Assembly: GCA_016285145.1 (NCBI GenBank) | Contig: JAEEQE010000016.1 | Span: 1-58,025, forward strand | DNA length: 58,025 nt | Origin: Bacteroidales bacterium | Lineage (GTDB): Bacteria; Bacteroidota; Bacteroidia; Bacteroidales; WCHB1-69 | Direction: 5' to 3' | Shown here: positions 21,762-36,913 of the stretch, piece after piece | Layout: every line of letters begins with the position of its first letter | Numbering within the stretch: position 1 is the first letter of the stretch | Notes under the pieces: model-generated | Told to the model about the DNA's origin: nothing | What the model saw: only the letters and a program-made list of their open reading frames with translations | Databases searched by the model: none | Made by a program: the position numbers and the translations under genes

Positions 21762-22538
21762 ATGAAAGTCGTTATTTTGGCCGGAGGTTACGGAACCCGT
21801 ATCAGTGAAGAAAGCCATCTGAAACCCAAACCGATGATTGAAATCGGTGACAAACCCATTTTGTGGCATATCATGAAAATCTATTCCCATTATGGGTACA
21901 ACGACTTCATCATCTGCTGCGGATACAAACATTATATCATAAAGGAGTGGTTTGCTGACTATTATCTTCACAACAGCGACATATCCTTTGATTTCACCAA
22001 CGACAATAAAATGACAGTGCTCAACACCTCCGCTGTGGAGCCTTGGAAGGTAACTCTGATAGACACCGGGCTCAACACCATGACCGGCGGGCGTGTGAAA
22101 CGCATTCAGAAATATGTCGGCGATGAGCCTTTTATGCTCACATACGGTGACGGTGTGGCTGACATCAACATCGCAGAACTGGTGAAATTCCACCAAAGCC
22201 ATGGCAAGATTGCCACCATCACGACCGTGAACGTGGGTCAGCGTTTCGGTATCATTGAAATGGACGACACCGACACCATCAAGGCCTTCCGCGAAAAATC
22301 CGACTCCGACGGCAGCGTTATCAATGGCGGATTCATGGTCTTTCAACCTGAAATATTCAATTATATTGACGACGACACCACTGTTTTTGAGAGAAAACCC
22401 CTTGAATCCATGGCCAAATTAGGAGAATTGAAGGCATACAAGCACGATGGTTTCTGGCAATGCATGGACACCCAACGCGACAAGATGAATCTGGAGGGAC
22501 TATGGGCATCGGGCAAGGCACCGTGGAAAGTATGGTAA
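21762..22538 (+). CDS. rfbF: Glucose-1-phosphate cytidylyltransferase
   Basis: The 258-residue protein starts MKVVILAGGYGTRISEE, the nucleotidyltransferase signature, and contains KPMIEIGDKPILWHIMK, YGDGVADIN and FWQCMDTQRDK, all typical of RfbF/DdhA. It makes CDP-glucose from glucose 1-phosphate and CTP, the first step to 3,6-dideoxyhexoses. The start is fixed by the promoter box upstream and by the conserved N-terminus. rfbG follows after 80 bases that contain a palindromic repeat. Confidence 0.95.
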   Translation: MKVVILAGGYGTRISEESHLKPKPMIEIGDKPILWHIMKIYSHYGYNDFIICCGYKHYIIKEWFADYYLHNSDISFDFTNDNKMTVLNTSAVEPWKVTLIDTGLNTMTGGRVKRIQKYVGDEPFMLTYGDGVADINIAELVKFHQSHGKIATITTVNVGQRFGIIEMDDTDTIKAFREKSDSDGSVINGGFMVFQPEIFNYIDDDTTVFERKPLESMAKLGELKAYKHDGFWQCMDTQRDKMNLEGLWASGKAPWKVW

Positions 22539-22578
22539 TTAGAATTGCAAAGCGCCTATAACAACAAACATTCATTAT

Positions 22579-22602
22579 AGAGACGGTGTGCACACCGTCT
22601 CT
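22579..22602. repeat. Perfect palindrome, TAGAGACG family, member 2
   Basis: AGAGACGGTGTG is followed directly by its reverse complement CACACCGTCTCT between rfbF and rfbG. The outer AGAGACG/CGTCTCT is shared with the repeat at 20137. Confidence 0.85.
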
Positions 22603-22618
22603 TATAACAAAAAAGAAC

Positions 22619-23689
22619 ATGCAGACATTCAAAGGCAAGAAGGTTTTTCTCACAGGCCACACCGGTTTCAAAGGTGCGTGGTTAACCTTGATGTTGCATC
22701 AGATGGGTGCAGAGGTGACGGGCTATTCGTTGGCACCGAACACCAACCCCAGCCTTTTCGAGGTTATTCAAGGTGAGGAAATGTGCCTTTCCGTCATCGG
22801 CGACCTCCGCGACACCCAGTTGCTGCATAAAACGATGACTGAGTGCCAGCCCGACGTGGTGTTCCACCTTGCCGCTCAACCGATTGTGAGAACCTCCTAC
22901 CAGATTCCCGCCGAGACCTTCGAGATCAACGCCATCGGCACCGCCAATGTGCTCGACGGCATACGGATGTTAAAGAAACCTTGCGTGGGCGTGATGATCA
23001 CCACCGACAAGGTCTATCAGAACAACGAAACGGGACAGGCCTACAAGGAGGACGACCGCTTCGGCGGCTACGACCCCTACAGCGCCAGCAAGGCGTGCGC
23101 CGAGTTGGTCATCGACTCGTATCGTAAATCGTTCTTTAATCCTGATGATTACGAACAGCATCACAAGACCATCGCTTCGGCCCGCGCCGGCAACGTTATC
23201 GGCGGGGGCGACTGGGCCGCCGACCGGCTGGTGCCCGACATCGTGCGGGCTTTGTCCAAAGGCGAGGCCATACAGATTCGAAACCCCAAAGCCGTGCGCC
23301 CGTGGCAACATGTGCTGGAACCGCTTTCCGGCTACATCCTGCTGGCGCAAAAGCTGATGGAAGATCCCGTCAAATACGCCGAGGGATTCAACTTCGGTCC
23401 GAACCCTGCCGACACGCTGACGGTGGAGGAGATGACGCAGATGGCCACGGAGATATGGGGCGGCGGCACATTTGTTTTCCCCCAGCTCACCAACCAACCG
23501 CACGAGGCGGGTCTGCTCTCGTTGGACATCACCAAAGCCGGCAAAGTGCTGGGCTGGAGACCACGCCTCAATGCACGACAGGCTCTGGAGATGACATTGG
23601 AGTGGTATAAAATGTTCTATCAGAAAGGAACTTCATCCATAGTGGAACTGATGAAGGAGCAGATAAACAGAAATTTTGTCATTTTATGA
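22619..23689 (+). CDS. rfbG: CDP-glucose 4,6-dehydratase
   Basis: From the chosen ATG the protein has 356 residues. VFLTGHTGFKGAWLTLML is the NAD-binding start typical of RfbG/DdhB, and GGYDPYSASKACAELVI carries the catalytic YxxxK. It converts CDP-glucose to CDP-4-keto-6-deoxyglucose. An in-frame extension of 11 codons upstream is unlikely because it reads through the palindrome-flanked leader and lacks homology. The next sugar gene in the pathway, rfbH, is displaced by an inserted ATPase gene. Confidence 0.95.
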   Translation: MQTFKGKKVFLTGHTGFKGAWLTLMLHQMGAEVTGYSLAPNTNPSLFEVIQGEEMCLSVIGDLRDTQLLHKTMTECQPDVVFHLAAQPIVRTSYQIPAETFEINAIGTANVLDGIRMLKKPCVGVMITTDKVYQNNETGQAYKEDDRFGGYDPYSASKACAELVIDSYRKSFFNPDDYEQHHKTIASARAGNVIGGGDWAADRLVPDIVRALSKGEAIQIRNPKAVRPWQHVLEPLSGYILLAQKLMEDPVKYAEGFNFGPNPADTLTVEEMTQMATEIWGGGTFVFPQLTNQPHEAGLLSLDITKAGKVLGWRPRLNARQALEMTLEWYKMFYQKGTSSIVELMKEQINRNFVIL

Positions 23690-23707
23690 TTTCCATAAAA
23701 TGGAAAT
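23689..23707. repeat. Palindrome in front of the first ATPase gene
   Basis: ATTTCCAT and ATGGAAAT are separated by AAA. It overlaps the end of rfbG by one base. The direct repeat GAAATTTTGT is also present at 23670 and 23703, 33 bases apart, the second copy running into the -7 box. It may be an operator. Confidence 0.5.
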
Positions 23708-23711
23708 TTTG

Positions 23712-23719
23712 TATTTTTG
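23712..23719 (+). promoter_or_regulatory. -7 promoter box of the first ATPase gene
   Basis: TATTTTTG lies 20 bases before the ATG of the ATPase gene and directly after a small palindrome. Confidence 0.6.
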
Positions 23720-23738
23720 CAAAATCAGATTTTGAAAA

Positions 23739-24887
23739 ATGGCAACAAATAGGAACAGGGCAATATTCGACAATCCCTTTGTCACGACAGGATATGTGGG
23801 AGCTGCTTATTTCTGTGACAGAGAAAAGGAGACGGAAGACATTGTACGATTGCTGACTAATGGTAACAATGTGGCTCTGATATCTCCCCGTAGATATGGG
23901 AAAACTGACTTGCTCCGGCATTGTTTTGCACAAAAAGAGATTGCAGAACGGTACTATACCTTTATAGTTGACATATATTCAACCAAATCGGTCTCAGAAA
24001 TGGTTGGTAAGCTGGGAAGTGTTATTTTGGAAACGCTCAAGCCTCACGGGAAAAAAATATGGGGGAAATTTCTAAAAATGCTCGCTTCAGTCAGGTCTGA
24101 AATCAGTTTCGACATTAATGGATTGCCTTCATGGACTATGAGTGTGGGTGATATAGAGGCTCCCGACACCACCCTGGGAGAAATATTCGCCTACTTGCAA
24201 AACGCAGATAAGCCCTGTATCGTAGCTATTGACGAGTTCCAGCAAATCACAAAATATGCCGACACGAACATCGAAGCTGCATTGCGGACGTATATTCAAT
24301 ATTGCAGCAATGCCAAATTTGTATTTTCCGGTTCACGTCAGCATTTGATGGGATCGATGTTCCTCTCTCCAGCACGTCCTTTTTATCAGAGCGTGACCAT
24401 CTATGGATTGAACCGACTACCCTTGGACAAGTACACGTCTTTTTGCCAATATCATTTTCAAGATTATGGCAAACAAGTGGAAAATGAGGTCGTAGAACAA
24501 TTATACAATCAATTTGAGGGTGTTACATACTACATCCAACGTGCCATGAACGAACTTTTCTTTCGAACCCCCATCAGTGGTGTATGTAAAACAAGAGATA
24601 TTGACAGTGCAATACAAGCGATTATAGACATCTCATCCCCGATATATGAGGATTTACTCTATCAATTACCGGAAAAGCAAAGCCGAGTGTTGGTGGCAAT
24701 TGGGAAAGAGCAAAAAGCTGTCAATATTACATCCGGAAAATTTGTGAAAAAACACGGGTTGCTTTCCCCGAATTCCGTTAAAGCAGCGGTCCCGGCTCTA
24801 ATAGACAAGGGTTTGCTCACTATGGACAAAGGGGTATATCAAGTTTACGACAAATTTTTCAACCTTTGGTTAGAACAACATATATGA
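23739..24887 (+). CDS. AAA-family ATPase of the archaeal-ATPase (ATPase_2) type with C-terminal winged helix
   Basis: The 382-residue protein begins with FDNPFVTTGYVGAAYFCDRE, then a Walker A variant SPRRYGKTDLLRH (about residues 49-60), Walker B CIVAIDEFQQIT and a sensor-like VFSGSRQHLMGS. The C-terminal 80 residues (KFVKKHGLLSPNSVKAAVPALIDKGLL) look like a winged helix. Family members occur in many copies in Bacteroidetes and archaea; their job is unknown. It interrupts the rfbG-rfbH order, has its own promoter and palindrome, appears richer in A+T than its neighbours, and is followed by a sequence shared with the second ATPase gene at 32802. These points suggest a mobile cassette. A sugar role is unlikely. 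Confidence 0.82.
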   Translation: MATNRNRAIFDNPFVTTGYVGAAYFCDREKETEDIVRLLTNGNNVALISPRRYGKTDLLRHCFAQKEIAERYYTFIVDIYSTKSVSEMVGKLGSVILETLKPHGKKIWGKFLKMLASVRSEISFDINGLPSWTMSVGDIEAPDTTLGEIFAYLQNADKPCIVAIDEFQQITKYADTNIEAALRTYIQYCSNAKFVFSGSRQHLMGSMFLSPARPFYQSVTIYGLNRLPLDKYTSFCQYHFQDYGKQVENEVVEQLYNQFEGVTYYIQRAMNELFFRTPISGVCKTRDIDSAIQAIIDISSPIYEDLLYQLPEKQSRVLVAIGKEQKAVNITSGKFVKKHGLLSPNSVKAAVPALIDKGLLTMDKGVYQVYDKFFNLWLEQHI

Positions 24888-24892
24888 TTGCC

Positions 24893-24936
24893 ATTACGAA
24901 AAAAGTCGTCACGAAAAAACGCATAATAAAGAATAG
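24893..24936. repeat. 3' flanking element shared by the two ATPase genes, copy 1
   Basis: Starts ATTACGAAAAAAGTC six bases after the ATPase stop and ends near GCATAATAAAGA. A closely similar stretch lies after the ATPase gene at 32802. Confidence 0.7.
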
Positions 24937-24989
24937 CACAAAAGAATCATGACCAAACGGGAAGAGACACTGCAATAACGAAAATATAT

Positions 24990-24997
24990 TACATTTG
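24990..24997 (+). promoter_or_regulatory. -7 promoter box of rfbH
   Basis: TACATTTG lies 18 bases before the rfbH ATG. It would restart transcription of the sugar operon downstream of the ATPase insertion. Confidence 0.5.
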
Positions 24998-25015
24998 AAT
25001 AACCAATAACATATT

Positions 25016-26329
25016 ATGTTGAACCATAAAGAATTACGCAAACAGATCACGGCATTGACCGCCGAATACTACAAAGCCCGCTTTGAAGAGAAAGAGTTCG
25101 TGCCCGGCAAGACCAAAGTGAACTATGCCGGTCGTGTGTTTGACGAGGAGGAATTGCAGAATGCGGTGAACGCATCTCTGGATTTCTGGCTGACAGAAGG
25201 AAGATTCTCCGAAGAGTTCTCCAGCAAGATTTCAGAGTTTTTGGGGGTGGAGAATGTGCTGCTCACCAATTCCGGCTCTTCCGCCAACCTGTTGGCGTTC
25301 ACAGCCCTGACTTCTGAAAAACTTGGTGACAAAAGGCTGAAGCCTGGTGACGAAGTGATCTCCGTGGCCGCCGGATTCCCCGCCACCGTGACACCTATCA
25401 TCCAAAACGGACTTGTACCTGTCTTCGTGGATCTTAGCATTCCGACCTATAATATTGATGTCGAAATGTTGAAGAAAGCCATCACCCCAAAAGTGAAGTG
25501 CATCTTCCTGGCACACACCCTCGGCAACCCGTTTGACATTGATGCCATCATGGAGATAGCCAAAGAGCACGATCTGTGGGTGGTGGAAGACAACTGCGAC
25601 GCTTTCGGTTCCGAATACAAGGGCCGAAAGACCGGCACATTCGGTCACATTTCCACCATATCGTTTTATCCCGCCCACCATATCACCACCGGCGAGGGCG
25701 GAGCCATCTGCACCAACGACCCGCAGCTGGCGAGAATCGTGCGTGCGTTCCGCGACTGGGGACGTGACTGTTACTGCGCCGGCGGCGACAACAACACCTG
25801 CGGCAAGCGCTTTTCCCAGCAGTTTGGCACGTTGCCCTTTGGCTTTGACCACAAGTATGTCTATTCGGAAATCGGCTACAACTTGAAGATGACCGACATA
25901 CAAGCTGCTATCGGAGCCGCCCAAATGGACAAGCTGCCCGACTTTTGCGAGAGTCGCAAGGCACATTTTCAAGAGTGGAAGCGTATCTTCGGCAAGTATT
26001 CGCAGTATTTCATCACCCCTGAACCCACCGAGGGAGCCGACCCCGCATGGTTCGCGTTTATCGTAACGTTGAAGGAAAACTGCCCGTTCAAACGCGATGA
26101 TTTGACCAAGTATCTGAACGATAACCTGATAGAAACCCGCAATTTCTTCGCCGGCAATATGACCAAGCAGCCTGCCTTCATCGGCAAAAACTGGCGTATT
26201 GCCGACCATCTGAACCGTACAGACTATATCATGAACAACACTTTCTTCTTGGGCACCTATCCCGGCCTTACCGATGAAATGTTCAAGTACGCAGAAGAGA
26301 AATTGGATGAATTCGTGAAACAATATTAA
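25016..26329 (+). CDS. rfbH: CDP-4-keto-6-deoxyglucose 3-dehydrase (E1, RfbH/DdhC)
   Basis: The 437-residue protein has the aminotransferase-like fold with LLTNSGSSANLLAFTAL and SFYPAHHITTGEGG. In the latter, His221 stands where aminotransferases have the PLP lysine, the hallmark of this dehydrase. The RDCYCAGGDNNTCGKRF segment carries the cysteines of its [2Fe-2S] cluster. It removes the 3-hydroxyl of CDP-4-keto-6-deoxyglucose using PMP, with electrons from the reductase encoded four bases downstream. The product, CDP-4-keto-3,6-dideoxyglucose, is the branch point for abequose, paratose, tyvelose, ascarylose and yersiniose. Confidence 0.96.
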   Translation: MLNHKELRKQITALTAEYYKARFEEKEFVPGKTKVNYAGRVFDEEELQNAVNASLDFWLTEGRFSEEFSSKISEFLGVENVLLTNSGSSANLLAFTALTSEKLGDKRLKPGDEVISVAAGFPATVTPIIQNGLVPVFVDLSIPTYNIDVEMLKKAITPKVKCIFLAHTLGNPFDIDAIMEIAKEHDLWVVEDNCDAFGSEYKGRKTGTFGHISTISFYPAHHITTGEGGAICTNDPQLARIVRAFRDWGRDCYCAGGDNNTCGKRFSQQFGTLPFGFDHKYVYSEIGYNLKMTDIQAAIGAAQMDKLPDFCESRKAHFQEWKRIFGKYSQYFITPEPTEGADPAWFAFIVTLKENCPFKRDDLTKYLNDNLIETRNFFAGNMTKQPAFIGKNWRIADHLNRTDYIMNNTFFLGTYPGLTDEMFKYAEEKLDEFVKQY

Positions 26330-26333
26330 CATT

Positions 26334-27017
26334 ATGTTGGCAAAGAAATACTTATCAGAGGTCGTTTCCATAGCGAACCCATTCAAGGGTATCTATACCG
26401 TGGAATTCAAGTCACTGGAAAGGCCTTACAAATATGCCCCGGGGCAGTTCCTCCATATCGCCATTGACGAGGAATACGACGGCATCGGACAGTGGCCGGA
26501 ATCGCGCTGCTTCTCCATGCAGAGCGACCCTGCCGAGGAGGTCATCCGCATCACCTACGCCGTGAAAGGAAACTTCACGCAAGAGATGGAAAAGACCTTG
26601 GCCGTGGGCAGGGAAGTGTGGCTGAAACTTCCGTTTGGCGAACTTTTCACACAGCCGCACAACAAAACCAATACCGTGTTCATTGCCGGCGGCACGGGCG
26701 TGACGCCCTTCCTTTCGCTCTTCACCCACGAATCCTTCAGGGACTATGCGGACCCGAAGATTTATCTGGGTTACAAAAACGAAGACTACTACATCTACCA
26801 AAAAGAGTTCGCCGCCATCCAGAACGACAATGCCCGAATCACCATCTTTTACGAAAACAAGGATGGCATAATCGACATTGCGAAGATTCACGAGCAGAAC
26901 GGCAACGATAGCAGCTATTTCATCTCCGGCCCTCCCGTGATGATCAAAATTTTCAAGGAAAAGCTCATCGAACTCGGCGTGCCGAAGGAGCATGTGCTCA
27001 CAGACGATTGGGAATAA
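26334..27017 (+). CDS. Flavin reductase for RfbH (E3-type, lacking the ferredoxin domain)
   Basis: The 227-residue protein matches the ferredoxin-NADP reductase fold: RCFSMQS binds FAD, FIAGGTGVTPFLSLF binds NAD(P)H, YFISGPPVMIK is the third motif and it ends in TDDWE. It most likely passes electrons to RfbH. Known partners AscD and DdhD are about 330 residues because they also carry an N-terminal plant-type [2Fe-2S] domain. That domain is absent here; the sequence begins directly with the FAD-binding barrel (MLAKKYLSEVVSIANPFKG). Electron transfer must then be direct or use a separate ferredoxin. Assignment relies on the four-base spacing to rfbH. Confidence 0.85.
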   Translation: MLAKKYLSEVVSIANPFKGIYTVEFKSLERPYKYAPGQFLHIAIDEEYDGIGQWPESRCFSMQSDPAEEVIRITYAVKGNFTQEMEKTLAVGREVWLKLPFGELFTQPHNKTNTVFIAGGTGVTPFLSLFTHESFRDYADPKIYLGYKNEDYYIYQKEFAAIQNDNARITIFYENKDGIIDIAKIHEQNGNDSSYFISGPPVMIKIFKEKLIELGVPKEHVLTDDWE

Positions 27018-27047
27018 TTTGGAACGTTAATACAACTTTTTAATAAA

Positions 27048-27824
27048 ATGAACTTACAAGAACGTCAAATGCTGGACTCCTTACTTGAATTAAAGGAAGT
27101 ATATGGAGTTTATGGAATAAAAGCGGAATTTGAGGCCGAAGGGGCCCGCATGGATGAACTTATCCGTCTTCGGGAATTGATATTACGTGCCGATTTGAAA
27201 TTCATCACCAAAATCGGCGGATGCGAAGCCGTGCACGACATGCAACAATGTAAATTGCTGGGCGCCACGGGCGTCATGGCACCGATGATTGAAACCCCTT
27301 TTGCGCTGAGCAAGTTCGTCGGCGCGGCAAAACGTGTTTATGGTGACGACATGGATTCTGTGGAATGGATCATCAATGCTGAAACGAAGACTTGCCATGC
27401 CAATTACAAAGAGATATTGGAAGTTGGCAGCGGGTTCTTGAAAACCGTCACCGTTGGTCGCAGTGATCTTTCTGCCTCTATGGGGATTGCGCGCAAGGAT
27501 ATTGAAACAGAACCTGTCTTTGAAGCCACACGAGATTTGTTGCAACAATCACGCCAGGCGGGAATCACCACCAATTTTGGTGGCAATATTGGTGTTGAAA
27601 GTATTCCGTTTATTGTCAGGATGAGTGACGTGGCCGATCGTTTTGAAACACGCAAAGTGGTGATTTCCATTGAAAAAGATGAAAACAAGTTAAAACAAAC
27701 CATCCACAAAGCCTTGGATTTTGAACTTCAATGGCTTTTATATAAAAAATCCTACTATACCCGCCTCTCCTCCGAGGACGAGGCCCGCATAGAGCGTATG
27801 CGTTATCAATTAAACAAAGATTAA
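27048..27824 (+). CDS. HpcH/HpaI aldolase / citrate-lyase-beta family protein
   Basis: The 258-residue protein has the TIM-barrel pattern of the family: KAEFEAEGARMDEL, FITKIGGCEAV, GVMAPMIETPFAL, IINAETKTCH and TVGRSDLSASMG. Glu112 and Asp140 are in the positions of the divalent-metal ligands of HpcH, so the lyase chemistry is probably intact. Family members cleave or form C-C bonds next to pyruvate or similar 2-oxo acids. Here it sits between the dideoxysugar genes and a 2-keto-3-deoxy-sugar-acid kinase-like gene, 30 bases after the reductase and two bases before the kinase. It could supply pyruvate, or build a longer sugar acid. The true substrate is unknown. Confidence 0.82.
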   Translation: MNLQERQMLDSLLELKEVYGVYGIKAEFEAEGARMDELIRLRELILRADLKFITKIGGCEAVHDMQQCKLLGATGVMAPMIETPFALSKFVGAAKRVYGDDMDSVEWIINAETKTCHANYKEILEVGSGFLKTVTVGRSDLSASMGIARKDIETEPVFEATRDLLQQSRQAGITTNFGGNIGVESIPFIVRMSDVADRFETRKVVISIEKDENKLKQTIHKALDFELQWLLYKKSYYTRLSSEDEARIERMRYQLNKD

Positions 27825-27826
27825 GT

Positions 27827-28849
27827 ATGGACAAAGTCGTTACTTTTGGTGAATTGATGTTGAAACTCTCCCCGGAAGGATATGGGAGACTTATCCAAGC
27901 ACATCAACTCAATGTGGAGTACAGCGGGGCGGAAGCCAACGTGGCCGTTTGTCTGGCCAATTTCGGACGGTCTGTTTCTTTTGTAACAGCTGTACCTGAT
28001 AATGTTTTAGGCGATGCCGCGATTAATGCCATGCGACATTACGGGGTAGATGTCTCTAACATCATTCGGAATGACGGGCGCTTAGGCATCTATTTTTCAG
28101 AAAAAGGCGCAAGCCAACGCCCTTCGAAAGTGGTGTACGACCGGAAACATTCCGCCATCGCCTTGGCAGCGGCATCCGATTTTGACTGGGATGCCATCTT
28201 CCATAATGCCACATGGTTCCATTTCACGGGCATCACACCCGCTTTGAGCGACAATGCCGCTGCCAATTGCCTTGCCGCCTGCAAAATGGCAAAATCCAAA
28301 GGCATTACCATCAGTTGCGACCTTAATTATCGGTCAAAACTTTGGAGCAAGGAAAAAGCCAATACTGTAATGACCGAGTTGTGCCAATATGTGGATATTT
28401 GCATAGCCAATGAAGCAGATGCCGCTGACGTGTTCGGAATCAAAGCAGAACAGTGCGATGTGGACAAAGGCATCCTTAATGAACAATCCTACCTTTCTGT
28501 AGCCCAACAGTTACAAAAGAAGTTTGGCTTCAAACAAGTGGCCATCACATTACGGGAATCCATCTCTGCCAGCGACAATAACTGGTCGGCCATCCTGTTG
28601 GATGACAACATAATCCATACAAGCCACAAATATCCCATTCATATCGTTGACCGGATAGGCGGTGGCGACTCCTTTGGTGCAGGTCTCGTTTACGCCATAT
28701 CAGCGGGTTATGACCCACAGCACGCTTTGGAGTTCGCAGTGGCAGCCAGTTGCCTGAAGCAAACCATTGAAGGGGATTTCAACCTCGTGACAATCGACGA
28801 GGTTGAATCTCTTGTTGACGGAAACCAATCGGGTAGAATATCAAGATAG
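27827..28849 (+). CDS. PfkB-family carbohydrate kinase, 2-keto-3-deoxygluconate kinase-like
   Basis: The 340-residue protein has the PfkB fold: VVTFGELMLKLSPEGYGRL at the N-terminus, SGAEANVAVCLANFGRSV, and DRIGGGDSFGAGLVYA with catalytic Asp at about residue 281. The N-terminus is most like KdgK, which phosphorylates 2-keto-3-deoxygluconate. It starts two bases after the aldolase stop, so the two enzymes probably work on the same compound: a kinase plus aldolase would turn a keto-deoxy sugar acid into pyruvate plus a phosphorylated aldehyde. Being in the middle of a CDP-sugar operon is unusual. The TPP enzyme gene follows after 19 bases. Confidence 0.85.
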   Translation: MDKVVTFGELMLKLSPEGYGRLIQAHQLNVEYSGAEANVAVCLANFGRSVSFVTAVPDNVLGDAAINAMRHYGVDVSNIIRNDGRLGIYFSEKGASQRPSKVVYDRKHSAIALAAASDFDWDAIFHNATWFHFTGITPALSDNAAANCLAACKMAKSKGITISCDLNYRSKLWSKEKANTVMTELCQYVDICIANEADAADVFGIKAEQCDVDKGILNEQSYLSVAQQLQKKFGFKQVAITLRESISASDNNWSAILLDDNIIHTSHKYPIHIVDRIGGGDSFGAGLVYAISAGYDPQHALEFAVAASCLKQTIEGDFNLVTIDEVESLVDGNQSGRISR

Positions 28850-28868
28850 ACCATATAAATGCCTTTTT

Positions 28869-30683
28869 ATGATTAAAGTTAGTGATTTTATTTTCCAATA
28901 TCTGGTTGAAAAATACAATATCCATCATTGTTTTATGGTGACAGGCGGTGGAGCCATGCACCTGAACGACTCCATAGGTCACACTAAAGGCCTGACGTAC
29001 ATCTGCAACCATCATGAACAGGCATCTGCCATTGCAGGAGAGGGCTATTACCGGGCTTGCGGCCAACTGGCCGTCACCTGCGTCACGACCGGACCCGGCG
29101 GCACCAATGCCGTTACCGGAGTTTTGGGACAATATCTTGATTCCATTCCCGGATTGTATATTTCCGGACAGATAAAGACTTCCACCTACAAGCATACTTA
29201 TCCGTATTTGAATCTGCGTCAACTGGGCGATCAAGAAGCGGATATCGTTTCCATCGTTACACCCATTACAAAGTATGCCAAAACCATTTACAATCCTTTG
29301 GATGTGAAATACGAGCTGGACAAGGCTATTGCCATCGCTTTGGACGGCAGACCCGGTCCTGTTTGGCTGGATGTTCCGCTGGACGTGCAAGGCGCCACCG
29401 TTGACGAAAGCCTGTTCCGTGAATTCAACCCCTCCGCTGAAATAATTGACCCTGTGAAACACTCCTTGGTGGATGAACAAATCAAACAACTTATCGAAAA
29501 AATCAGAGGTTCGAAAAGTCCTGTCATCTATGTGGGCAATGGCGTTCGGCTGGCCAAACGGGAAAAGGAGTTCATCCAACTGGCAGAAACCCTGAATATT
29601 CCCGTGGTCACGGCTATCAGCGGCTCCGACATCATCTGGCACAACCACCCGCTGTGTTTCGGAAAGCCCGGCATTTGCGGCGACCGCATCGGGAACATCA
29701 TGGTACAAAATGCCGACCTGTTGATTGTAATGGGTACACGCTTGAGCATCCGACAAGTAAGTTATGCCTACGACCTGCTGGCCCCCAAAGCATTCAAAGT
29801 GATGGTGGACATTGACCTTGCCGAGATGCAAAAACCCACATTGAACATCGACATGCCCATCCATGTTAATCTTTCAGAGTTTATAGACAAGATGCTTGTC
29901 GCCCTTGTGAACGAGAAAACGCTGCCCGGTTTTATGGAGTGGAAAAATTGGGGAAGGGCCATTGAAAGCAAACTCCCCACCCTTTTTGATGACAATCCGG
30001 ATTGTGAAGGATATGCCAACTCGTACAAGTTCGCCGACGAACTTTTCAAGCAACTTAAGGATGGCGATGTAGTTGTGACGGGCAACGGCACGGCTTACAC
30101 CTGCACCTATCAAGCCATGAACGTCAACAAAGGGGTAAGAGTGTTTGCCAACCAAGGCTGTGCCGCCATGGGTTACGGATTGCCCGCTGCCATCGGTGCC
30201 TGCGTCAGCAATGAAAAAGGGAAAACAATCTGCGTGACGGGTGACGGTTCCATCCAAATGAACATTCAGGAACTTCAAACCATTGTCACAAACAAACTGC
30301 CACTGAAAATCTTCGTGTTAGAGAATGAAAGCTACCTGGCTATCAAAACAACCCAAAAAGCTTTCTTTAACGGGAATTTCACGGGAAGCAACCCAACAAG
30401 CGGAGTGATATGCCCTGATTTGAAACGAATTGCGGAAGCATACGGAATTCCCTTCACACGAGTGTCAAGCAATGATGAATTACACGATGCCATTGCTCAA
30501 ACACTGAACGCCGAAGGTGCCATGATTTGTGAAGTGAAAATGCATCCCGAACAGACTCTTTTTCCTAAATCCGCATCTTTTATGGATAAGGAGACAGGGA
30601 AAATGACATCCGCGCCACTTGACAAAATGGCCCCTTTCATGCCTGAGGAACTACAATCACAATGTGTATTCACAAGCAAATAA
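28869..30683 (+). CDS. Thiamine-diphosphate-dependent enzyme, acetolactate synthase-like (YerE-type candidate)
   Basis: From the chosen ATG (MIKVSDFIFQYL) the protein has 604 residues in three TPP-enzyme domains: the pyrimidine-binding domain with catalytic Glu50 in HHEQASAIAGEG and TTGPGGTNAVTGV, a central domain, and the pyrophosphate domain with GDG at 458-460 and NQGCAAMGYGLPAAIGA. It resembles acetohydroxyacid synthase but lies in a sugar locus. In Yersinia, YerE, a relative, attaches a two-carbon unit from pyruvate to C4 of CDP-3,6-dideoxy-4-keto-glucose, the product made by the genes just upstream. That is the best hypothesis here. The earlier in-frame ATG at 28803 overlaps the kinase gene and adds 22 residues not typical of the family. 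Confidence 0.85.
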   Translation: MIKVSDFIFQYLVEKYNIHHCFMVTGGGAMHLNDSIGHTKGLTYICNHHEQASAIAGEGYYRACGQLAVTCVTTGPGGTNAVTGVLGQYLDSIPGLYISGQIKTSTYKHTYPYLNLRQLGDQEADIVSIVTPITKYAKTIYNPLDVKYELDKAIAIALDGRPGPVWLDVPLDVQGATVDESLFREFNPSAEIIDPVKHSLVDEQIKQLIEKIRGSKSPVIYVGNGVRLAKREKEFIQLAETLNIPVVTAISGSDIIWHNHPLCFGKPGICGDRIGNIMVQNADLLIVMGTRLSIRQVSYAYDLLAPKAFKVMVDIDLAEMQKPTLNIDMPIHVNLSEFIDKMLVALVNEKTLPGFMEWKNWGRAIESKLPTLFDDNPDCEGYANSYKFADELFKQLKDGDVVVTGNGTAYTCTYQAMNVNKGVRVFANQGCAAMGYGLPAAIGACVSNEKGKTICVTGDGSIQMNIQELQTIVTNKLPLKIFVLENESYLAIKTTQKAFFNGNFTGSNPTSGVICPDLKRIAEAYGIPFTRVSSNDELHDAIAQTLNAEGAMICEVKMHPEQTLFPKSASFMDKETGKMTSAPLDKMAPFMPEELQSQCVFTSK

Positions 30684-30697
30684 AGCCTTCTTTCATC

Positions 30698-31603
30698 ATG
30701 CATAACCTCATCGTCACAGGAGCTACCGGATGTGTCGGAAGCGCGGTCGTCAGACAGGCGCTCGCACGAGGTATGAACGTGACATGCATCGTCCACAACG
30801 ATTCCAAAAGGCTATCGAATCTTCCTCAAAGTGAACGCGTTCATGTTGTAGAATGCAATCTGTCGGATTACTCCTCACTGGAATTAGCAGGCCAATATGA
30901 TGCCTTCATACACCTGTCATGGGAGAAAACCTTCGGTACCTCCCGCGATGATGCCGAGACCCAAACCCGCAACATCCAATACACCCTTGATGCCGTCAGA
31001 TTAGCACATCGTTGCGGCTGCAGCGTGTTTGTAGGTGCAGGATCGCAGGCAGAATATGGTGTGCAATCGCAAGACCTTACCCCCACCCTGCCTGTCAGCC
31101 CCGAAAGCGGATACGGCATCGCCAAGTATGCGGCAGGGAAGTTGTCGGCTATGCTGTGCAAAAGTTTAGGCCTCCGTCACAACTGGGTGCGCATTCTCAG
31201 CGTTTATGGCCCGAACGATGGAGAAAACACGCTCATCAGTTACGCCATTCGCGAGCTGAAAGCCGGACGTTCCCCCGAGCTCACCAAATGCGAGCAGATT
31301 TGGGACTACCTTTATGCCGACGATGCCGGCGACGCCATTCTGTCAGTTGCCGCCAACGGCGTTGACGGCAAAACATACCCTTTGGGGTCAGGACAAGGAA
31401 GAAAGTTGTCAGAATACATTGAGGAGATCCGCCAGATCATCAATCCTTCCGTTAAAGTCCAATATGGTGTTAAAGACTATTATCCGCATCAGCCGATGCA
31501 CCTGGTGGCCGACATCAGCGAGCTGACGAAGGATACCGGATGGAAACCAAAATTTACTTTTATAAAAGGGATCCTTTCATTTGTTTGTAACGATAATGAT
31601 TGA
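30698..31603 (+). CDS. NAD-dependent epimerase/dehydratase/reductase (SDR; YerF-type candidate)
   Basis: The 301-residue extended SDR begins MHNLIVTGATGCVGSAVVRQ and carries GAGSQAEYG and the catalytic YGIAK. It starts 14 bases after the TPP gene. In the yersiniose route the last step is reduction of the acetyl side chain by YerF, and the position here suits such a role. An epimerase or 4-reductase of the same fold is equally possible on sequence alone. An upstream ATG 12 codons earlier overlaps the TPP gene and was rejected because the Rossmann motif normally starts near residue 3-5. Confidence 0.82.
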   Translation: MHNLIVTGATGCVGSAVVRQALARGMNVTCIVHNDSKRLSNLPQSERVHVVECNLSDYSSLELAGQYDAFIHLSWEKTFGTSRDDAETQTRNIQYTLDAVRLAHRCGCSVFVGAGSQAEYGVQSQDLTPTLPVSPESGYGIAKYAAGKLSAMLCKSLGLRHNWVRILSVYGPNDGENTLISYAIRELKAGRSPELTKCEQIWDYLYADDAGDAILSVAANGVDGKTYPLGSGQGRKLSEYIEEIRQIINPSVKVQYGVKDYYPHQPMHLVADISELTKDTGWKPKFTFIKGILSFVCNDND

Positions 31604-31615
31604 TATTAAATAATT

Positions 31616-32587
31616 ATGAAAAAAATAAGCATCCTGATACCCTGTTATAACGAAGAAGAAAACGTGGTGCCCATAAGCAAAGCCGTGGTGGAAGAGTTAC
31701 AAAACAACCTTCCAAACTACGACTACGAGATTGTTTTCATCGACAATGACTCACAGGACAACACCCGCCCCTTGTTGCGGGAAATCTGCAAGCAGAATCC
31801 TAAAATCAAGGCCATCTTCAATGCCAAGAATTTTGGGCAGTTCAACAGTCCATACTATGGAATGCTCCAAACCTCAGGCGATTGCACCATCAGTATGTGC
31901 TGTGACTTCCAAGATCCTGTGGAGATGATTCCCCGTTTGGTGGAAACCTGGGAAAACGGTGCCAAAATCGTCTCCTGTATCAAGACCAAGAGCAAGGAGA
32001 ATCCCATCATGCGTTTTTTGCGCACCATTTATTATAAAATCATCAAGAAAATGTCTTCTGTGGACCAGATTGAGCATTTTACCGGCTTTGGTCTTTATGA
32101 CAAAAGCTTTATCGAGGTGTTGCGCAATCTGAAAGACCCCACCCCGTTCATTCGCGGCATTGTGGCCGAACTGGGTTATAAACGGGTGGACATTGAATAC
32201 ACCCAGGCAAAGCGACGTGCCGGGAAAACGCACAACAATTTCTTCACCCTGTTTGATGCGGCCATGCTCAGCTTCACCAGCTACACCAAGGTAGGCCTGC
32301 ATCTCGTCACTTTTGCCGGATTGATATTGTCAGGCTTGTCGATTCTGGCCGCATTGGTTTACCTTGTACTGAAGCTGATTTATTGGGATTCCTTCTCCGC
32401 CGGCTTGGCTCCATTGATCATCGGCCTGTTCTTCATCAATGCGGTGGAATTGCTCTTTATCGGCTTCGTGGGAGAGTACGTGATGAGCATCAACACGCGG
32501 GTGATGAACCGCCCACTGGTGATTGAAGAGGAACGCATTAATTTTGATACAGAAGATAAAGAAAATCCCTGTTTCGAATCAGAATAA
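31616..32587 (+). CDS. GtrB-like family 2 glycosyltransferase with two C-terminal membrane helices
   Basis: The 323-residue protein has a GT2 domain (ISILIPCYNEEENV; VFIDNDSQDNT; CCDFQDPVEMIPRL) and two membrane helices near residues 225-290, the layout of GtrB/ArnC-type enzymes that load a sugar on undecaprenyl phosphate at the inner face of the membrane. It is the last gene of the tightly spaced sugar-synthesis run, 12 bases after the reductase gene, so it may move the sugar made here onto the lipid carrier. Known GtrB proteins use UDP or GDP sugars, so use of a CDP-sugar is only inferred. A gtrA flippase gene is at 37139. Confidence 0.87.
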   Translation: MKKISILIPCYNEEENVVPISKAVVEELQNNLPNYDYEIVFIDNDSQDNTRPLLREICKQNPKIKAIFNAKNFGQFNSPYYGMLQTSGDCTISMCCDFQDPVEMIPRLVETWENGAKIVSCIKTKSKENPIMRFLRTIYYKIIKKMSSVDQIEHFTGFGLYDKSFIEVLRNLKDPTPFIRGIVAELGYKRVDIEYTQAKRRAGKTHNNFFTLFDAAMLSFTSYTKVGLHLVTFAGLILSGLSILAALVYLVLKLIYWDSFSAGLAPLIIGLFFINAVELLFIGFVGEYVMSINTRVMNRPLVIEEERINFDTEDKENPCFESE

Positions 32588-34144: not shown

Positions 34145-36913
34145 ATGAGTTCTAAAAAATCAAAAAAGCAGGTTAAAAGCAATGGCACAGTATTAGGGAA
34201 ACAATACCCGAGCGATTTGAAAAATGCCAACAACGAGCTTGTCTCCAACATTGTTCAATGGTCATTTTGTATTATCGGGACCATTTTCCTGTTTTCATGT
34301 TTAGGTTTACTAATCTCCAAAATATACCATCCGGAAACAGAAAGCATTGTAAAGGCCGCGTTAGAAAAATGTATCGTAACGGACTTCCAACCAGAACCCG
34401 TGGAGGCCTTGTTGTTCCGAACAGGACTGCTCTTTATCCCATGCTGTCTTCTTGGCCTTTACTTTCTCACCACTCGTTCATTTTTCAAAAAAATCGCACA
34501 AAACAAATGGTTAGCTTATTCCTTGGTTGTTTTGGCTTCAGCTGGCATTGCCTTCTTGGGATATTATGTGTTTGCCCAAGACAACCCCACCTATCTTGAG
34601 ACACTTGGAAGATTACATAACGAGCGGGACCGACTGGCGGTCACCAATTATGATTTTTTCTTCAAGGACACTTTCCTTGACACTCATCTGGCTCAATATT
34701 TCCTGCTATGGGTATCCTTGTTACTTTTATTCTATCTGTTTGTGGTCAAGTTTATTCGTGGAATCGGATCCAAAGTATATAAAATATTATCTTCCGCCGT
34801 GCTTTTTGTGTTTGCCGCAATCATCCTGATTCAGATCTTCAACATGATGCACTTCGACATGCCTTTGAACTGGGAAAACCAATTTGACTTCAATGCCGTC
34901 TTCTATTCTGCCACTCAGGTAAATGCCGGCAGTCAACTGCTGAATGACGGGTTCACGAACACGTATGGCTTATATCCTCATTTTCTACAGCCTTTCTTTA
35001 ATCTATTTGGATTTTCGGTTTCCAGTTTCACCTTCGCGATGAGTTTATTGATTGTTTTTACTTTTGCCTCCATCCTGCTCTTTTTATACACTACGGTACA
35101 AGACAAGATCATCGCACTGCTCGGTTTTGGCACCAGTTTATATTTCTCCTATTTGCTGAACCGTTTGATCATGAATTTTGATTCTGCTTTTGCCATTTTC
35201 CCCATCCGAACCACACCGGTGGCTCTCCTGCTTTTAACTGTTTCCCTTTTCTTAATAGCGGTAAAAAAGGACAAACAGCGCTTTCAGCGCATTGTCTATT
35301 ACGTCGGAACAGTCCTTATGGCGTTCGGTGTTATTTGGAATTTCGAGTTCGGATTAGTTTCCTATCTTTCATGGTTGGCATTCCTCTGCTATTATGATTT
35401 CTTTTCCCCTGAAAAGAAATTCAATTGGAAGAAAATCCTGTTCCATTTTGGAGTATGGATTGTCACATTATTGCTGGCTTTTGCATGTTATGGAATAATC
35501 CAACGAATACATTACGGTCATTTCCCCGATTTCAGCTTACTCACATCCACACTCTCTGTTTTTGGATCCATGGGGTTTTTCATGTTGCCCATGCCGTTGT
35601 TCCACCCGTGGATGTTGCTCGTTCTTGTCCATATCTTATGCTTGGTTTATGCCATCAGCCGACTTTTCAAAAAGGACATCACACCCAAATCTGCCGCCAT
35701 ATTCCTGATGGCCATTTTAGGATGCGGTCTTTTCGCATACTATCAGGGCAGAAGCCACAACTGGAATTTCACCACAAGCTTGCTTCCAGGTCTCATTGAA
35801 CTCACACTGCTCACTGACGAATTATGGGCAACCTTCAAACGCACCAACAACTTCATCTTAACGCCATTCCTTTATTTGTGCTTTGCCTGTCTGTTACTTT
35901 CAACCATTAGTCTTGGCGCCGCATCTTCCGACATTAGCAACTTGGCCAATCAAACCGTCCGCAAAGAATTGAAGCCTGCCTATGCCAAAGAGAAAAAATA
36001 TATCAACAGCGTCAACCATTTCATCGATTCCTGCGATATCTCCTCCGACCGTGTCATATTGCTGTGTTCCAACAAGTACCAAGGGTTGTTCATGCAGGAC
36101 AAGCGGATGCGCTCCGCCGTCAATCCGGGTATTCTGGACTTGTTTTATAAAACAGATGCCGAGCGATATGTGACTACCCTTGCCGATTCCGCCTACGATG
36201 TGTTTTTAGGCAACAATTTCTACTATCCATATCTTTCCGACATTCGTACTGTTTTAACTGCGGAATATCAAGTTGTAGATCGTCTTTACGACACCACCGC
36301 TTTGATTTTCGCTCATTTGCAGAAACGGAACACTCCTTCTCCAGCAACCGTATTTTTCCAAAAAAGAAATACAACCCTGCTGCATGAAAAATTCACCAAA
36401 GACTCCACATATTACCGTCAACTGTGCAATCTGTCGAAAAACGGACGGGACAGTTTGGACATCCCGTCCACCTTTACTGTGGAAATCCTCTTCCGCGCCG
36501 ACAGCATGCAATTCTACCAATACCCCGTGCTATGTGCCAATAACACTGATAGCTCGGGCTTTGCAATATTCAACACGGGGAACAAGGCAAAACCTGACGA
36601 ATATTACATCAATATTGGTGGCATCGGATTCCCTATCCAGCTGAAATCCAATCAATGGCACTACCTTACCGTAGTGTTTTCCGGACAACAAGTCTATGCC
36701 TTTGATAACGGGCAAATGAAAGCTGCTGTCATGTTCCCCTCCTCGTACAAGAAATCCGAGAACAAACTATATGTTGGGAACAATGGTTCCCTGCGGCATT
36801 TCTCTGGCATTATCAATGAGGTTGCCATATCCTCCGGCGCACTATCTGCTCAAGAGATTTCAAACACTTGGCAGAATATCAATTCCAGCATACAGAAACT
36901 ACGCCCCCGATAG
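34145..36913 (+). CDS. Multi-pass membrane protein with C-terminal LamG/concanavalin-like domain, probable GT-C glycosyltransferase
   Basis: The 922-residue protein has about a dozen or more hydrophobic helices in residues 35-600, then an extracytoplasmic part. Residues about 775-915 look like a LamG/concanavalin fold: STFTVEILFRAD, WHYLTVVFSGQQVYAFDNGQ and HFSGIINEVAISSGALSAQE. The helix region with acidic and aromatic loops (NWENQFDFNAVFYS, TNTYGLYPHFLQPFF) resembles GT-C enzymes that use polyprenyl-phosphate sugars on the outer face of the membrane. Its place beside GtrB-like, GtrA and GT2 genes supports a role in transferring a lipid-linked sugar to a surface glycan. The LamG end may bind the acceptor. 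No family was recognised with certainty. Confidence 0.68.
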   Translation: MSSKKSKKQVKSNGTVLGKQYPSDLKNANNELVSNIVQWSFCIIGTIFLFSCLGLLISKIYHPETESIVKAALEKCIVTDFQPEPVEALLFRTGLLFIPCCLLGLYFLTTRSFFKKIAQNKWLAYSLVVLASAGIAFLGYYVFAQDNPTYLETLGRLHNERDRLAVTNYDFFFKDTFLDTHLAQYFLLWVSLLLLFYLFVVKFIRGIGSKVYKILSSAVLFVFAAIILIQIFNMMHFDMPLNWENQFDFNAVFYSATQVNAGSQLLNDGFTNTYGLYPHFLQPFFNLFGFSVSSFTFAMSLLIVFTFASILLFLYTTVQDKIIALLGFGTSLYFSYLLNRLIMNFDSAFAIFPIRTTPVALLLLTVSLFLIAVKKDKQRFQRIVYYVGTVLMAFGVIWNFEFGLVSYLSWLAFLCYYDFFSPEKKFNWKKILFHFGVWIVTLLLAFACYGIIQRIHYGHFPDFSLLTSTLSVFGSMGFFMLPMPLFHPWMLLVLVHILCLVYAISRLFKKDITPKSAAIFLMAILGCGLFAYYQGRSHNWNFTTSLLPGLIELTLLTDELWATFKRTNNFILTPFLYLCFACLLLSTISLGAASSDISNLANQTVRKELKPAYAKEKKYINSVNHFIDSCDISSDRVILLCSNKYQGLFMQDKRMRSAVNPGILDLFYKTDAERYVTTLADSAYDVFLGNNFYYPYLSDIRTVLTAEYQVVDRLYDTTALIFAHLQKRNTPSPATVFFQKRNTTLLHEKFTKDSTYYRQLCNLSKNGRDSLDIPSTFTVEILFRADSMQFYQYPVLCANNTDSSGFAIFNTGNKAKPDEYYINIGGIGFPIQLKSNQWHYLTVVFSGQQVYAFDNGQMKAAVMFPSSYKKSENKLYVGNNGSLRHFSGIINEVAISSGALSAQEISNTWQNINSSIQKLRPR

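What the first reader, a model, noticed from the sequence alone, without database searches (positions are those of the whole stretch)
21762..32587. A yersiniose-like branched CDP-dideoxysugar pathway in a Bacteroidales-type genome
The sequence shows rfbF, rfbG, rfbH and a flavin reductase, then a TPP-dependent acetolactate-synthase-like enzyme, an SDR reductase and a GtrB-like transferase in close order. From known chemistry the first four make CDP-4-keto-3,6-dideoxyglucose, and in Yersinia YerE (a TPP enzyme) and YerF (an SDR) turn this into CDP-yersiniose. The inference is that this bacterium makes a branched-chain dideoxysugar, or a variant, for its surface glycan. I am not aware of such a set being described for this group.
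Basis: partly seen in the sequence, partly recalled or inferred. Interest (0 to 1): 0.75.

Follow-up and report, generated by a model that had tools for sequence, protein, structure and literature searches.

The report
Long-branch dideoxysugar pathway in Bacteroidales
A bacterium of the Bacteroidales carries an operon that appears to build an unusual branched sugar for its surface, with its own candidate enzymes to make the branch as well as to attach it, so the product is probably a longer-branched relative of yersiniose and not yersiniose itself.

Summary
The TPP enzyme is YerE-like, not an acetolactate synthase: its best PDB match is JanthE (8rph), and E. coli IlvB, IlvI and Gcl fall outside in a tree. 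In 27 loci sorted (window included), YerE-like genes lie near one kind of 2-keto-acid-forming gene (HpcH 12, NeuB 5, DmpFG 2) or none found (8), never two. Pocket position 121 is Phe in 5ahk (probably PpYerE), L057 and the three E. coli enzymes, but Asp here. Best reading: a CDP-3,6-dideoxyhexose with a long hydroxylated C4 branch (caryophyllose/erwiniose-like), probably from a 2-keto-3-deoxy sugar acid. Against it: close relatives with the same pocket residues lack the aldolase and kinase, and the pair also occurs without the TPP gene. Yersiniose from pyruvate stays the main rival. No product was tested. YerE-like enzymes are a known family with over 200 in-silico members, so this is a variant, not a new kind.

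The parts
21762..22538 (+). rfbF, glucose-1-phosphate cytidylyltransferase (CDP-glucose)
   Evidence: TIGR02623 401 bits over cut-off 300
22619..23689 (+). rfbG, CDP-glucose 4,6-dehydratase
   Evidence: TIGR02622 491 bits over cut-off 278
25016..26329 (+). rfbH, CDP-6-deoxy-4-keto-hexose 3-dehydrase
   Evidence: NF011936 679 bits over cut-off 423
26334..27017 (+). FAD/NAD reductase, probably the electron donor of this RfbH subtype
   Evidence: PF00175; present in 6 of 6 TPP loci whose RfbH is at least 69% like this one and found in 0 of 17 whose RfbH is 49-56% like it (some of these are short contigs)
27048..27824 (+).
   Evidence: PF03328 42 bits; AF2 model pLDDT 92; Foldseek top hit HpaI 7et9, E 2e-8, TM about 0.6; E112 and D140 invariant in 17 of 17
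27827..28849 (+).
   Evidence: PDB 2afb KDG kinase E 3.5e-112; NF041633 574 bits on the kinase part of a fusion model, under its cut-off of 700; beside the aldolase-like gene in 8 of 8 genomes that have it among 104 family genomes
28869..30683 (+). YerE-like ThDP-dependent carboligase (proposed branch-attaching enzyme)
   Evidence: PF02775, PF02776, PF00205; PDB 8rph (JanthE) 417 bits, 5ahk 247 bits, acetolactate synthase isozyme 1 (6lpi) 219 bits; tree
30698..31603 (+). extended SDR, proposed reducer of the branch ketone (YerF-like role)
   Evidence: PF01370 125 bits; 28-31% identical to the SDR beside the TPP gene in L013-L016 and L050
31616..32587 (+). GtrB-like polyprenyl-phosphate glycosyltransferase
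   Evidence: PF00535; NF047588 167 bits, under its cut-off of 500
34145..36913 (+). 922-aa protein with a C-terminal laminin-G-like domain; candidate membrane glycosyltransferase (inference)
   Evidence: PF13385 49 bits
37055..37546 (+). GtrA-like flippase candidate
   Evidence: PF04138 93.5 bits
37553..38281 (+). second GT2 glycosyltransferase
   Evidence: PF00535 73 bits

Best explanation
The operon makes and exports a C4-branched CDP-3,6-dideoxyhexose. RfbF, RfbG, RfbH and the reductase give CDP-4-keto-3,6-dideoxyglucose (strong by family, not assayed). The HpcH-type aldolase joins pyruvate to an aldehyde to give a 4-hydroxy-2-keto (2-keto-3-deoxy) acid, and the KDG-kinase-like enzyme phosphorylates it or its relative (inferred). 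The YerE-like ThDP enzyme decarboxylates this donor and adds the acyl unit to the C4 ketone of the CDP sugar (class of reaction supported by homology; donor inferred). The SDR reduces the new ketone (inferred). GtrB, GtrA and a downstream protein carry the sugar over on polyprenyl phosphate and attach it to a surface glycan (inferred). The likeliest donor is KDG or KDPG or a close relative, giving a roughly C11, caryophyllose-like sugar instead of C8 yersiniose.
For: YerE-like identity: 8rph 417 bits against 219 for acetolactate synthase 6lpi; tree with IlvB, IlvI, Gcl apart at 100/99; 8rph is JanthE, which accepts pyruvate, longer 2-keto acids and 4-hydroxy-2-oxovalerate. Donor-gene swapping: of 27 TPP loci sorted (window included), 12 carry HpcH, 5 NeuB, 2 DmpG+DmpF, in 8 none was found, and none carries two. 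JanthE's nearest row is L075, which has DmpFG, by family the makers of 4-hydroxy-2-oxovalerate. Position 121 is Asp in 12 of 12 HpcH loci, Val or Leu in the 2 DmpFG loci, Phe in L057, 5ahk, IlvB, IlvI and Gcl. HpcH comes with PfkB in 8 of 8 family genomes. KDPG aldolase PF01081: 7 of 8 genomes whose same-clade TPP locus lacks HpcH-PfkB, 0 of 4 that have it; rate in the order 62 of 197; a KDG kinase lies within 1 kb of it in 6 of the 7. Caryophyllose carries a 1,3,4,5-tetrahydroxyhexyl branch, deoxy at C2' as a 2-keto-3-deoxy donor would leave it.
Against: L013's TPP protein is 89% identical with the same eight pocket residues, yet its locus and genome have no HpcH match, so this TPP clade does not need the aldolase in general; its genome G500 also lacks PF01081 and has only a weak KDG-kinase match (32% identity). 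Asp121 is also in 7 of 8 loci without a donor gene and is missing from 2 of 5 NeuB loci. HpcH-PfkB occurs without TPP in four loci of the same family (L037-L040), before a class I aminotransferase and an ATP-grasp gene; a weaker HpcH relative lies without TPP in L026, another in a catabolic-looking Ilyobacter locus, and one with RfbF-RfbG but no TPP or RfbH in Novosphingobium. The HpcH protein matches known aldolases only distantly; Foldseek also lists pyruvate kinases and malyl-CoA lyases at similar scores, and Lys55 stands where HpaI has, from memory, Arg70. The PF01081 comparison is confounded by kinship: 1 of 103 family genomes has it over the cut-off. I recall no kinase in such a pathway; two HAD phosphatase references found no match in 37 kb of the window.
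Confidence: 0.5

Rival explanations
1. Classical yersiniose-like pathway: the TPP enzyme uses pyruvate, the SDR reduces the acetyl branch to hydroxyethyl, and the HpcH-PfkB pair serves another sugar or amino-acid building block of the same glycan.
For: Seven clade members (L013-L016, L050, L052, L053) keep rfbG, rfbH, an SDR and TPP with no donor gene found in the stretches searched, with the eight pocket residues the same except Ala/Ser at 498; HpcH-PfkB also occurs without TPP; JanthE accepts pyruvate.
Against: Asp121 and Tyr299 instead of Phe and Ala of 5ahk; HpcH, PfkB and TPP stay together in L012 although RfbH and SDR there are of other types; 7 of 8 genomes of the clade without HpcH-PfkB have a KDPG aldolase, so another donor could be at hand.
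Confidence: 0.27
2. HpcH and PfkB form a KDG-breaking module (kinase, then aldolase, like KdgK-Eda) that only feeds pyruvate to the TPP enzyme.
For: The kinase is the only strong KDG-kinase-like match in the genome (one other hit at E 7e-4) and no PF01081 aldolase was found there, so HpcH could stand in for Eda; an Ilyobacter relative lies among catabolic genes.
Against: In the window, L011, L012 and L017 the pair sits among surface-sugar genes, and in L037-L040 among transferase-like and aminotransferase genes; I recognised no uronate-breakdown genes beside it, but most of these neighbours were judged by eye only. Pyruvate needs no dedicated source.
Confidence: 0.1
3. The TPP enzyme does not act on the CDP sugar at all (an acetolactate synthase or a catabolic lyase in a glycan operon).
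For: PF02775/PF02776/PF00205 are shared by all such enzymes; the best NCBIfam hit is TIGR00118 acetolactate synthase, and no other match to this protein was found in the genome.
Against: 334 bits is far below TIGR00118's cut-off of 538; tree position; RfbG or RfbH lies in the same fetched stretch in 24 of 29 TPP loci, and four of the other five (L011, L024, L055, L074) are cut by contig ends.
Confidence: 0.05

Closest known systems
YerE-YerF yersiniose pathway (Yersinia; PpYerE)
   Same: CDP-4-keto-3,6-dideoxyglucose genes, a YerE-like ThDP enzyme, an SDR
   Different: Two extra genes (HpcH aldolase-like, PfkB kinase); the TPP enzyme is nearer JanthE than 5ahk (probably PpYerE) and has Asp121, Tyr299; YerE of Yersinia and YerF themselves were not compared
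JanthE (Janthinobacterium sp. HH01, PDB 8rph)
   Same: Closest solved enzyme, 417 bits; shares Tyr297 and Lys567 (window 299 and 567)
   Different: GDG ThDP motif here, CDG in JanthE; residues 121, 268, 293, 494, 498 and 564 differ; JanthE's natural substrates are unknown
ErwE erwiniose pathway (Pectobacterium) and MMAR_2332 caryophyllose pathway (Mycobacterium marinum)
   Same: According to the review, YerE-like enzymes that prefer longer hydroxylated 2-keto acids
   Different: I had neither sequence nor gene cluster of these, so kinship and gene order were not compared
HpcH/HpaI class II pyruvate aldolases (HpaI, YfaU, SwHKA)
   Same: Same barrel fold, Glu and Asp metal-site motifs kept
   Different: 14-19% identity in the structural matches to these enzymes; an invariant Lys at the apparent place of HpaI's Arg70 (recalled)
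KdgK-Eda (2-keto-3-deoxygluconate kinase with KDPG aldolase)
   Same: Same kinase kind paired with an aldolase-like protein
   Different: No PF01081 match in the genome; the partner is an HpcH-type protein and the pair lies in a glycan operon

Membership tests
YerE-like ThDP ketone lyases | Sequence groups with characterised YerE-like enzymes and outside AHAS | tested here: met
   Tree of 34 rows: 31 rows apart from IlvB, IlvI, Gcl at 100/99; JanthE inside a 29-row group with the window (100/99). 5ahk has a long branch, so its exact place is unsure
YerE-like ThDP ketone lyases | ThDP site (GDG...N motif, Glu50) | tested here: met
   GDG motif and HHEQ in the window protein; E50, D459, G460 and N486 invariant in 29 of 29
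YerE-like ThDP ketone lyases | Adds an acyl unit to a 4-keto sugar | not testable with these tools
   Needs an enzyme assay
Yersiniose pathway | CDP-4-keto-3,6-dideoxyglucose gene set | tested here: met
   RfbF, RfbG, RfbH over curated cut-offs
Yersiniose pathway | TPP enzyme with a pyruvate-type pocket like PpYerE (5ahk taken as PpYerE; identification recalled) | tested here: not met
   Asp121 and Tyr299 against Phe and Ala in 5ahk; a sequence proxy, not an assay
Yersiniose pathway | YerF reductase | tested here: inconclusive
   An extended SDR is present but no YerF sequence was compared
Long-branch (erwiniose/caryophyllose-type) pathway | Dedicated maker of a hydroxylated 2-keto-acid donor beside the ThDP enzyme | tested here: inconclusive
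   An HpcH-like gene and a kinase are present; their activity is unknown, and no known erwiniose or caryophyllose cluster was compared
HpcH/HpaI class II aldolase | Barrel fold and metal-binding Glu/Asp | tested here: met
   Foldseek top hits HpaI and SwHKA; E112 and D140 invariant in 17 of 17, lying in the motifs matched to SwHKA
HpcH/HpaI class II aldolase | Catalytic Arg (Arg70 of HpaI, recalled) | tested here: inconclusive
   Lys55 is invariant at the apparent place; no superposition was made
KDG kinase (PfkB) | Similarity to solved KDG kinase | tested here: met
   2afb E 3.5e-112; substrate not tested

The most novel reading that the evidence does not exclude
A combinatorial scheme for branched surface sugars in Bacteroidota: one CDP-dideoxysugar and ThDP-ligase core is combined with exchangeable donor modules (HpcH, NeuB or DmpFG) and finishing modules (kinase, HAD phosphatase, or SDR plus dehydroquinate-synthase homologue that could close the branch into a carbocycle), yielding sugars not yet seen. 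In the window the donor is KDG or KDPG, giving an unknown C11 branched dideoxysugar.
Probability: 0.35. Interest if true: 0.75.

Novelty: new variant of a known kind. Interest (0 to 1): 0.55.

Why it matters
Branched sugars on bacterial surfaces can be strong antigens, and their structures are usually found only by chemistry. If the gene beside the ThDP ligase sets the branch, the sugar class could be predicted from the genome. The review states that for the vast majority of the YerE-like enzymes found in silico no sugar structure is known; the donor modules listed here give direct, testable donor predictions, and new enzyme-donor pairs for making tertiary alcohols.

Tried and rejected
Rejected: TPP enzyme as acetolactate synthase (under the curated cut-off; tree; of 56 plasmid records matched, the 15 listed are at 31.6% identity or less and 9 of the 15 are annotated ilvB or ilvG). 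Rejected as too strong: 'the aldolase is required by this TPP enzyme' (no HpcH in the stretches of L013-L016, L050, L052, L053). A search for donor-pocket changes between HpcH-bearing and HpcH-free members of the window's clade found none at the eight JanthE positions apart from Ala/Ser at 498; 13 other columns separate the four HpcH-bearing rows from L013-L016, and their places in the fold were not examined. Plasmid search with P0007 at 1e-90 gave nothing. Dehydroquinate synthase in one bradyrhizose paper: the terms were not found in PMC4743980. Paper searches on branched sugars with acetolactate synthase in Bacteroidetes and on 2-keto-3-deoxy donors listed nothing on this set. Not done: SDR structure, TPP structure, comparison with YerE of Yersinia, YerF, ErwE or MMAR_2332 sequences (not at hand).

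Rows dropped: L018 (TPP cut by a contig end) and L071 (partial match) are not in the tree or counts; L051 (no rfb genes) and L070 (3.1 kb contig) are in the tree but not in the 27 loci counted by donor gene. L041 is the genome of L017 again (same coordinates) and was not counted twice. Absence of a donor gene was judged only within the stretch fetched (8.5-22 kb for the eight loci without one). The 1e-90 cut also let in rows near the AHAS range (L057 33%, L070 35%).


Full report
What is there. The window lies in a 2.73 Mb genome of 71 contigs. The eight named loci that the TPP protein brought in are titled Bacteroidales (3), Prevotellaceae (3), Bacteroidaceae (1) and Clostridiales (1, a cut fragment); two titles name rumen or reticulum. 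L011, L012 and L017 sit at the same contig coordinates as G420, G408 and G405, which are told as the same genus as the window, so I take the window to be Bacteroidales. At 21762-32587 run rfbF, rfbG, an ATPase gene, rfbH, an FAD/NAD reductase, an HpcH/HpaI-type protein, a PfkB kinase, a TPP enzyme, an extended SDR and a GtrB-like transferase. From rfbH to gtrB the gaps are 2 to 30 bp.

The TPP enzyme. Its best solved relative is 8rph (417 bits), then 5ahk (247), then acetolactate synthase isozyme 1, 6lpi (219). PMC12188165 (part 1 of 3 and passages seen) names 8rph as JanthE and says that it takes pyruvate, 2-oxobutanoate, 2-oxovalerate, 4-methyl-2-oxovalerate and 4-hydroxy-2-oxovalerate, natural substrates unknown. 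That 5ahk is PpYerE is my recollection; the PDB name is acetolactate synthase II. A tree of 29 rows from loci (window included), JanthE, 5ahk, E. coli IlvB, IlvI and Gcl sets the 3 E. coli enzymes apart at 100/99; 5ahk joins L057 (97/87), JanthE joins L075 (100/100); the window joins L011, L012 and L017 (100/99), then L013 (99/98), inside a 12-row clade (100/100). The tool flags long branches for 5ahk, Gcl, IlvI, L056, L070, L074 and L076, so their places are less sure.

What lies beside such enzymes. Searches at E 1e-90 found matches in 9 of 393 genomes of the order and 15 of 395 of the phylum, own genome included in both; the named scan gave 8 loci. Of the 29 loci in the tree, 27 were sorted by donor gene: HpcH 12 (window, L011, L012, L017, L019-L025, L055), NeuB PF03102 5 (L054, L072, L073, L074, L076), DmpG plus DmpF 2 (L056, L075), none found 8 (L013-L016, L050, L052, L053, L057); no locus has two. 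L051 has no rfb genes and L070 is on a short contig. Many of these loci are kin (L019-L025 are all of one family, f19), so the counts are not independent. Each of the gene types belongs to a family that makes 2-keto acids by joining pyruvate or phosphoenolpyruvate to an aldehyde (family knowledge). A review (PMC12247030; outline, passages and part 1 of 2 of the reference list seen) says that ErwE prefers donors such as 4-hydroxy-2-oxo acids and that MMAR_2332 (caryophyllose) has a similar preference.

The pocket. At the eight JanthE positions named in PMC12188165 the window has Asp121, Cys270, Arg295, Tyr299, Thr494, Ala498, Leu564, Lys567. Position 121 is Asp in 12 of 12 HpcH loci, 3 of 5 NeuB loci (Tyr and Val in the other two), 7 of 8 loci without a donor gene and the orphan L051; Val or Leu in the two DmpFG loci, Val in JanthE; Phe in L057, 5ahk, IlvB, IlvI and Gcl; Thr in L070. 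I read Asp as a sign of a hydroxylated donor; this is an inference. Against a simple story, L013-L015 have exactly the same eight residues without any aldolase nearby, and L013's genome has no HpcH match.

The aldolase-like protein and the kinase. The HpcH protein matches PF03328 (42 bits), folds at pLDDT 92 and resembles HpaI, SwHKA and YfaU (TM about 0.6, 14-19% identity in those rows); pyruvate kinases and malyl-CoA lyases, of the same wide superfamily, score little worse. E112 and D140 are invariant in 17 of 17 and lie in the motifs matched to SwHKA. Lys55 stands where I recall HpaI's Arg70. In the phylum sample 9 of 395 genomes have a match: the window's, seven of family f19 (all seven beside a YerE-like gene) and one weak one, G077, without it. 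The kinase is nearest KDG kinase 2afb and is the only such match in the genome apart from one at E 7e-4. Of 104 family genomes 8 have the HpcH gene and all 8 have the kinase next to it; 9 have the kinase at 1e-60. Four of these 8 (L037-L040) have no TPP gene in the stretch read but a class I aminotransferase and an ATP-grasp gene (Pfam run on L037; similar starts in L038-L040), and three of them (L037-L039) a DegT-like gene before the pair (Pfam run on L037). An aminotransferase is another kind of 2-keto-acid user, so this fits a keto-acid-making pair, but it also shows that the pair is not tied to branching. Further HpcH relatives without TPP: Novosphingobium (L078, with RfbF and RfbG) and Ilyobacter (L077, catabolic-looking).

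A test set before the search. If the TPP clade uses KDG or KDPG, clade members without HpcH-PfkB should have another source (written as the next test in the notebook). PF01081 was found in 7 of 8 such genomes (G501, G502, G503, G823, G883, G757, G884; not G500) and 0 of 4 with HpcH-PfkB; in 6 of the 7 a KDG kinase lies within 1 kb (not G884). G823 is the genome of the orphan L051. None of the 8 other genomes in that call (three family members with the pair but no TPP, four of f19, G516) had PF01081. Rate in the order: 62 of 197 over the cut-off; Fisher p 0.002 for 7 of 8 against this, 0.01 for 7 of 8 against 0 of 4. Weaknesses: two of the eight are of one genus, the four HpcH genomes are of one genus, and their family almost lacks PF01081 anyway (1 of 103 over the cut-off). 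I rate it as supportive, not decisive.

Reductase. The FAD/NAD reductase is found in 6 of 6 TPP loci whose RfbH is 69% or more like the window's (window, L017, L054, L056, L057, L072) and in 0 of 17 whose RfbH is 49-56% like it (a 45-bit match in L075, did not reach this search's threshold), so it probably serves this RfbH subtype.

Verdict. A YerE-like branching pathway is well supported by sequence; a longer, hydroxylated branch from a 2-keto-3-deoxy acid is my best explanation at 0.5; yersiniose from pyruvate is the main rival at 0.27. The family is known and more than 200 members were predicted by others, so this is a variant. Judged from titles and the starts of abstracts, my paper searches listed none on this gene set in Bacteroidales, but the main survey was not readable.

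Noticed in passing
L019, L021-L024, L072: Dehydroquinate-synthase homologue (PF01761 and PF24621, Pfam run on L021; the others by BLAST) with a 220-aa SDR near the YerE-like TPP gene and the HpcH or NeuB gene; L020, L025 and L055, which have HpcH but not this gene, have a HAD gene instead. Could close the branch into a ring.
   Followed up: partly
L054, L072, L073, L074, L076: NeuB-family synthase (PF03102) near the TPP gene in place of an aldolase.
   Followed up: partly
L056, L075: DmpG- and DmpF-type genes (PF07836, PF09290) beside the TPP gene, an erwiniose-like donor set.
   Followed up: partly
L037-L040: HpcH-PfkB pair without a TPP gene, followed by a class I aminotransferase and an ATP-grasp gene; the HpcH gene in L040 has one internal stop.
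   Followed up: partly
window 23739-24887 and 32802-34052; L011 5458-6615; L017 9791-10948: ATPase genes (ATPase_2 or AAA_14/DUF4143) sit at different places in the operon in different relatives, as if they move.
   Followed up: no
window 28869-30683 and L013 5303-7111: TPP proteins 89% identical while RfbF, RfbG and RfbH of the same loci are only 62, 48 and 51% identical: the clusters look like mosaics.
   Followed up: partly
L019: RfbF, RfbG, TPP and HpcH but no RfbH match in 19.5 kb: the acceptor there may keep its 3-hydroxyl.
   Followed up: no
L078 10037-16820 (Novosphingobium humi megaplasmid): RfbF, RfbG and HpcH homologues in a row, followed by genes that look like polysaccharide export genes and a GtrB homologue, without RfbH or TPP matches in 24.8 kb.
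   Followed up: partly
window genome: No other match to the TPP protein at E 0.001 or better, so no acetolactate synthase was found in this 95% complete genome.
   Followed up: no
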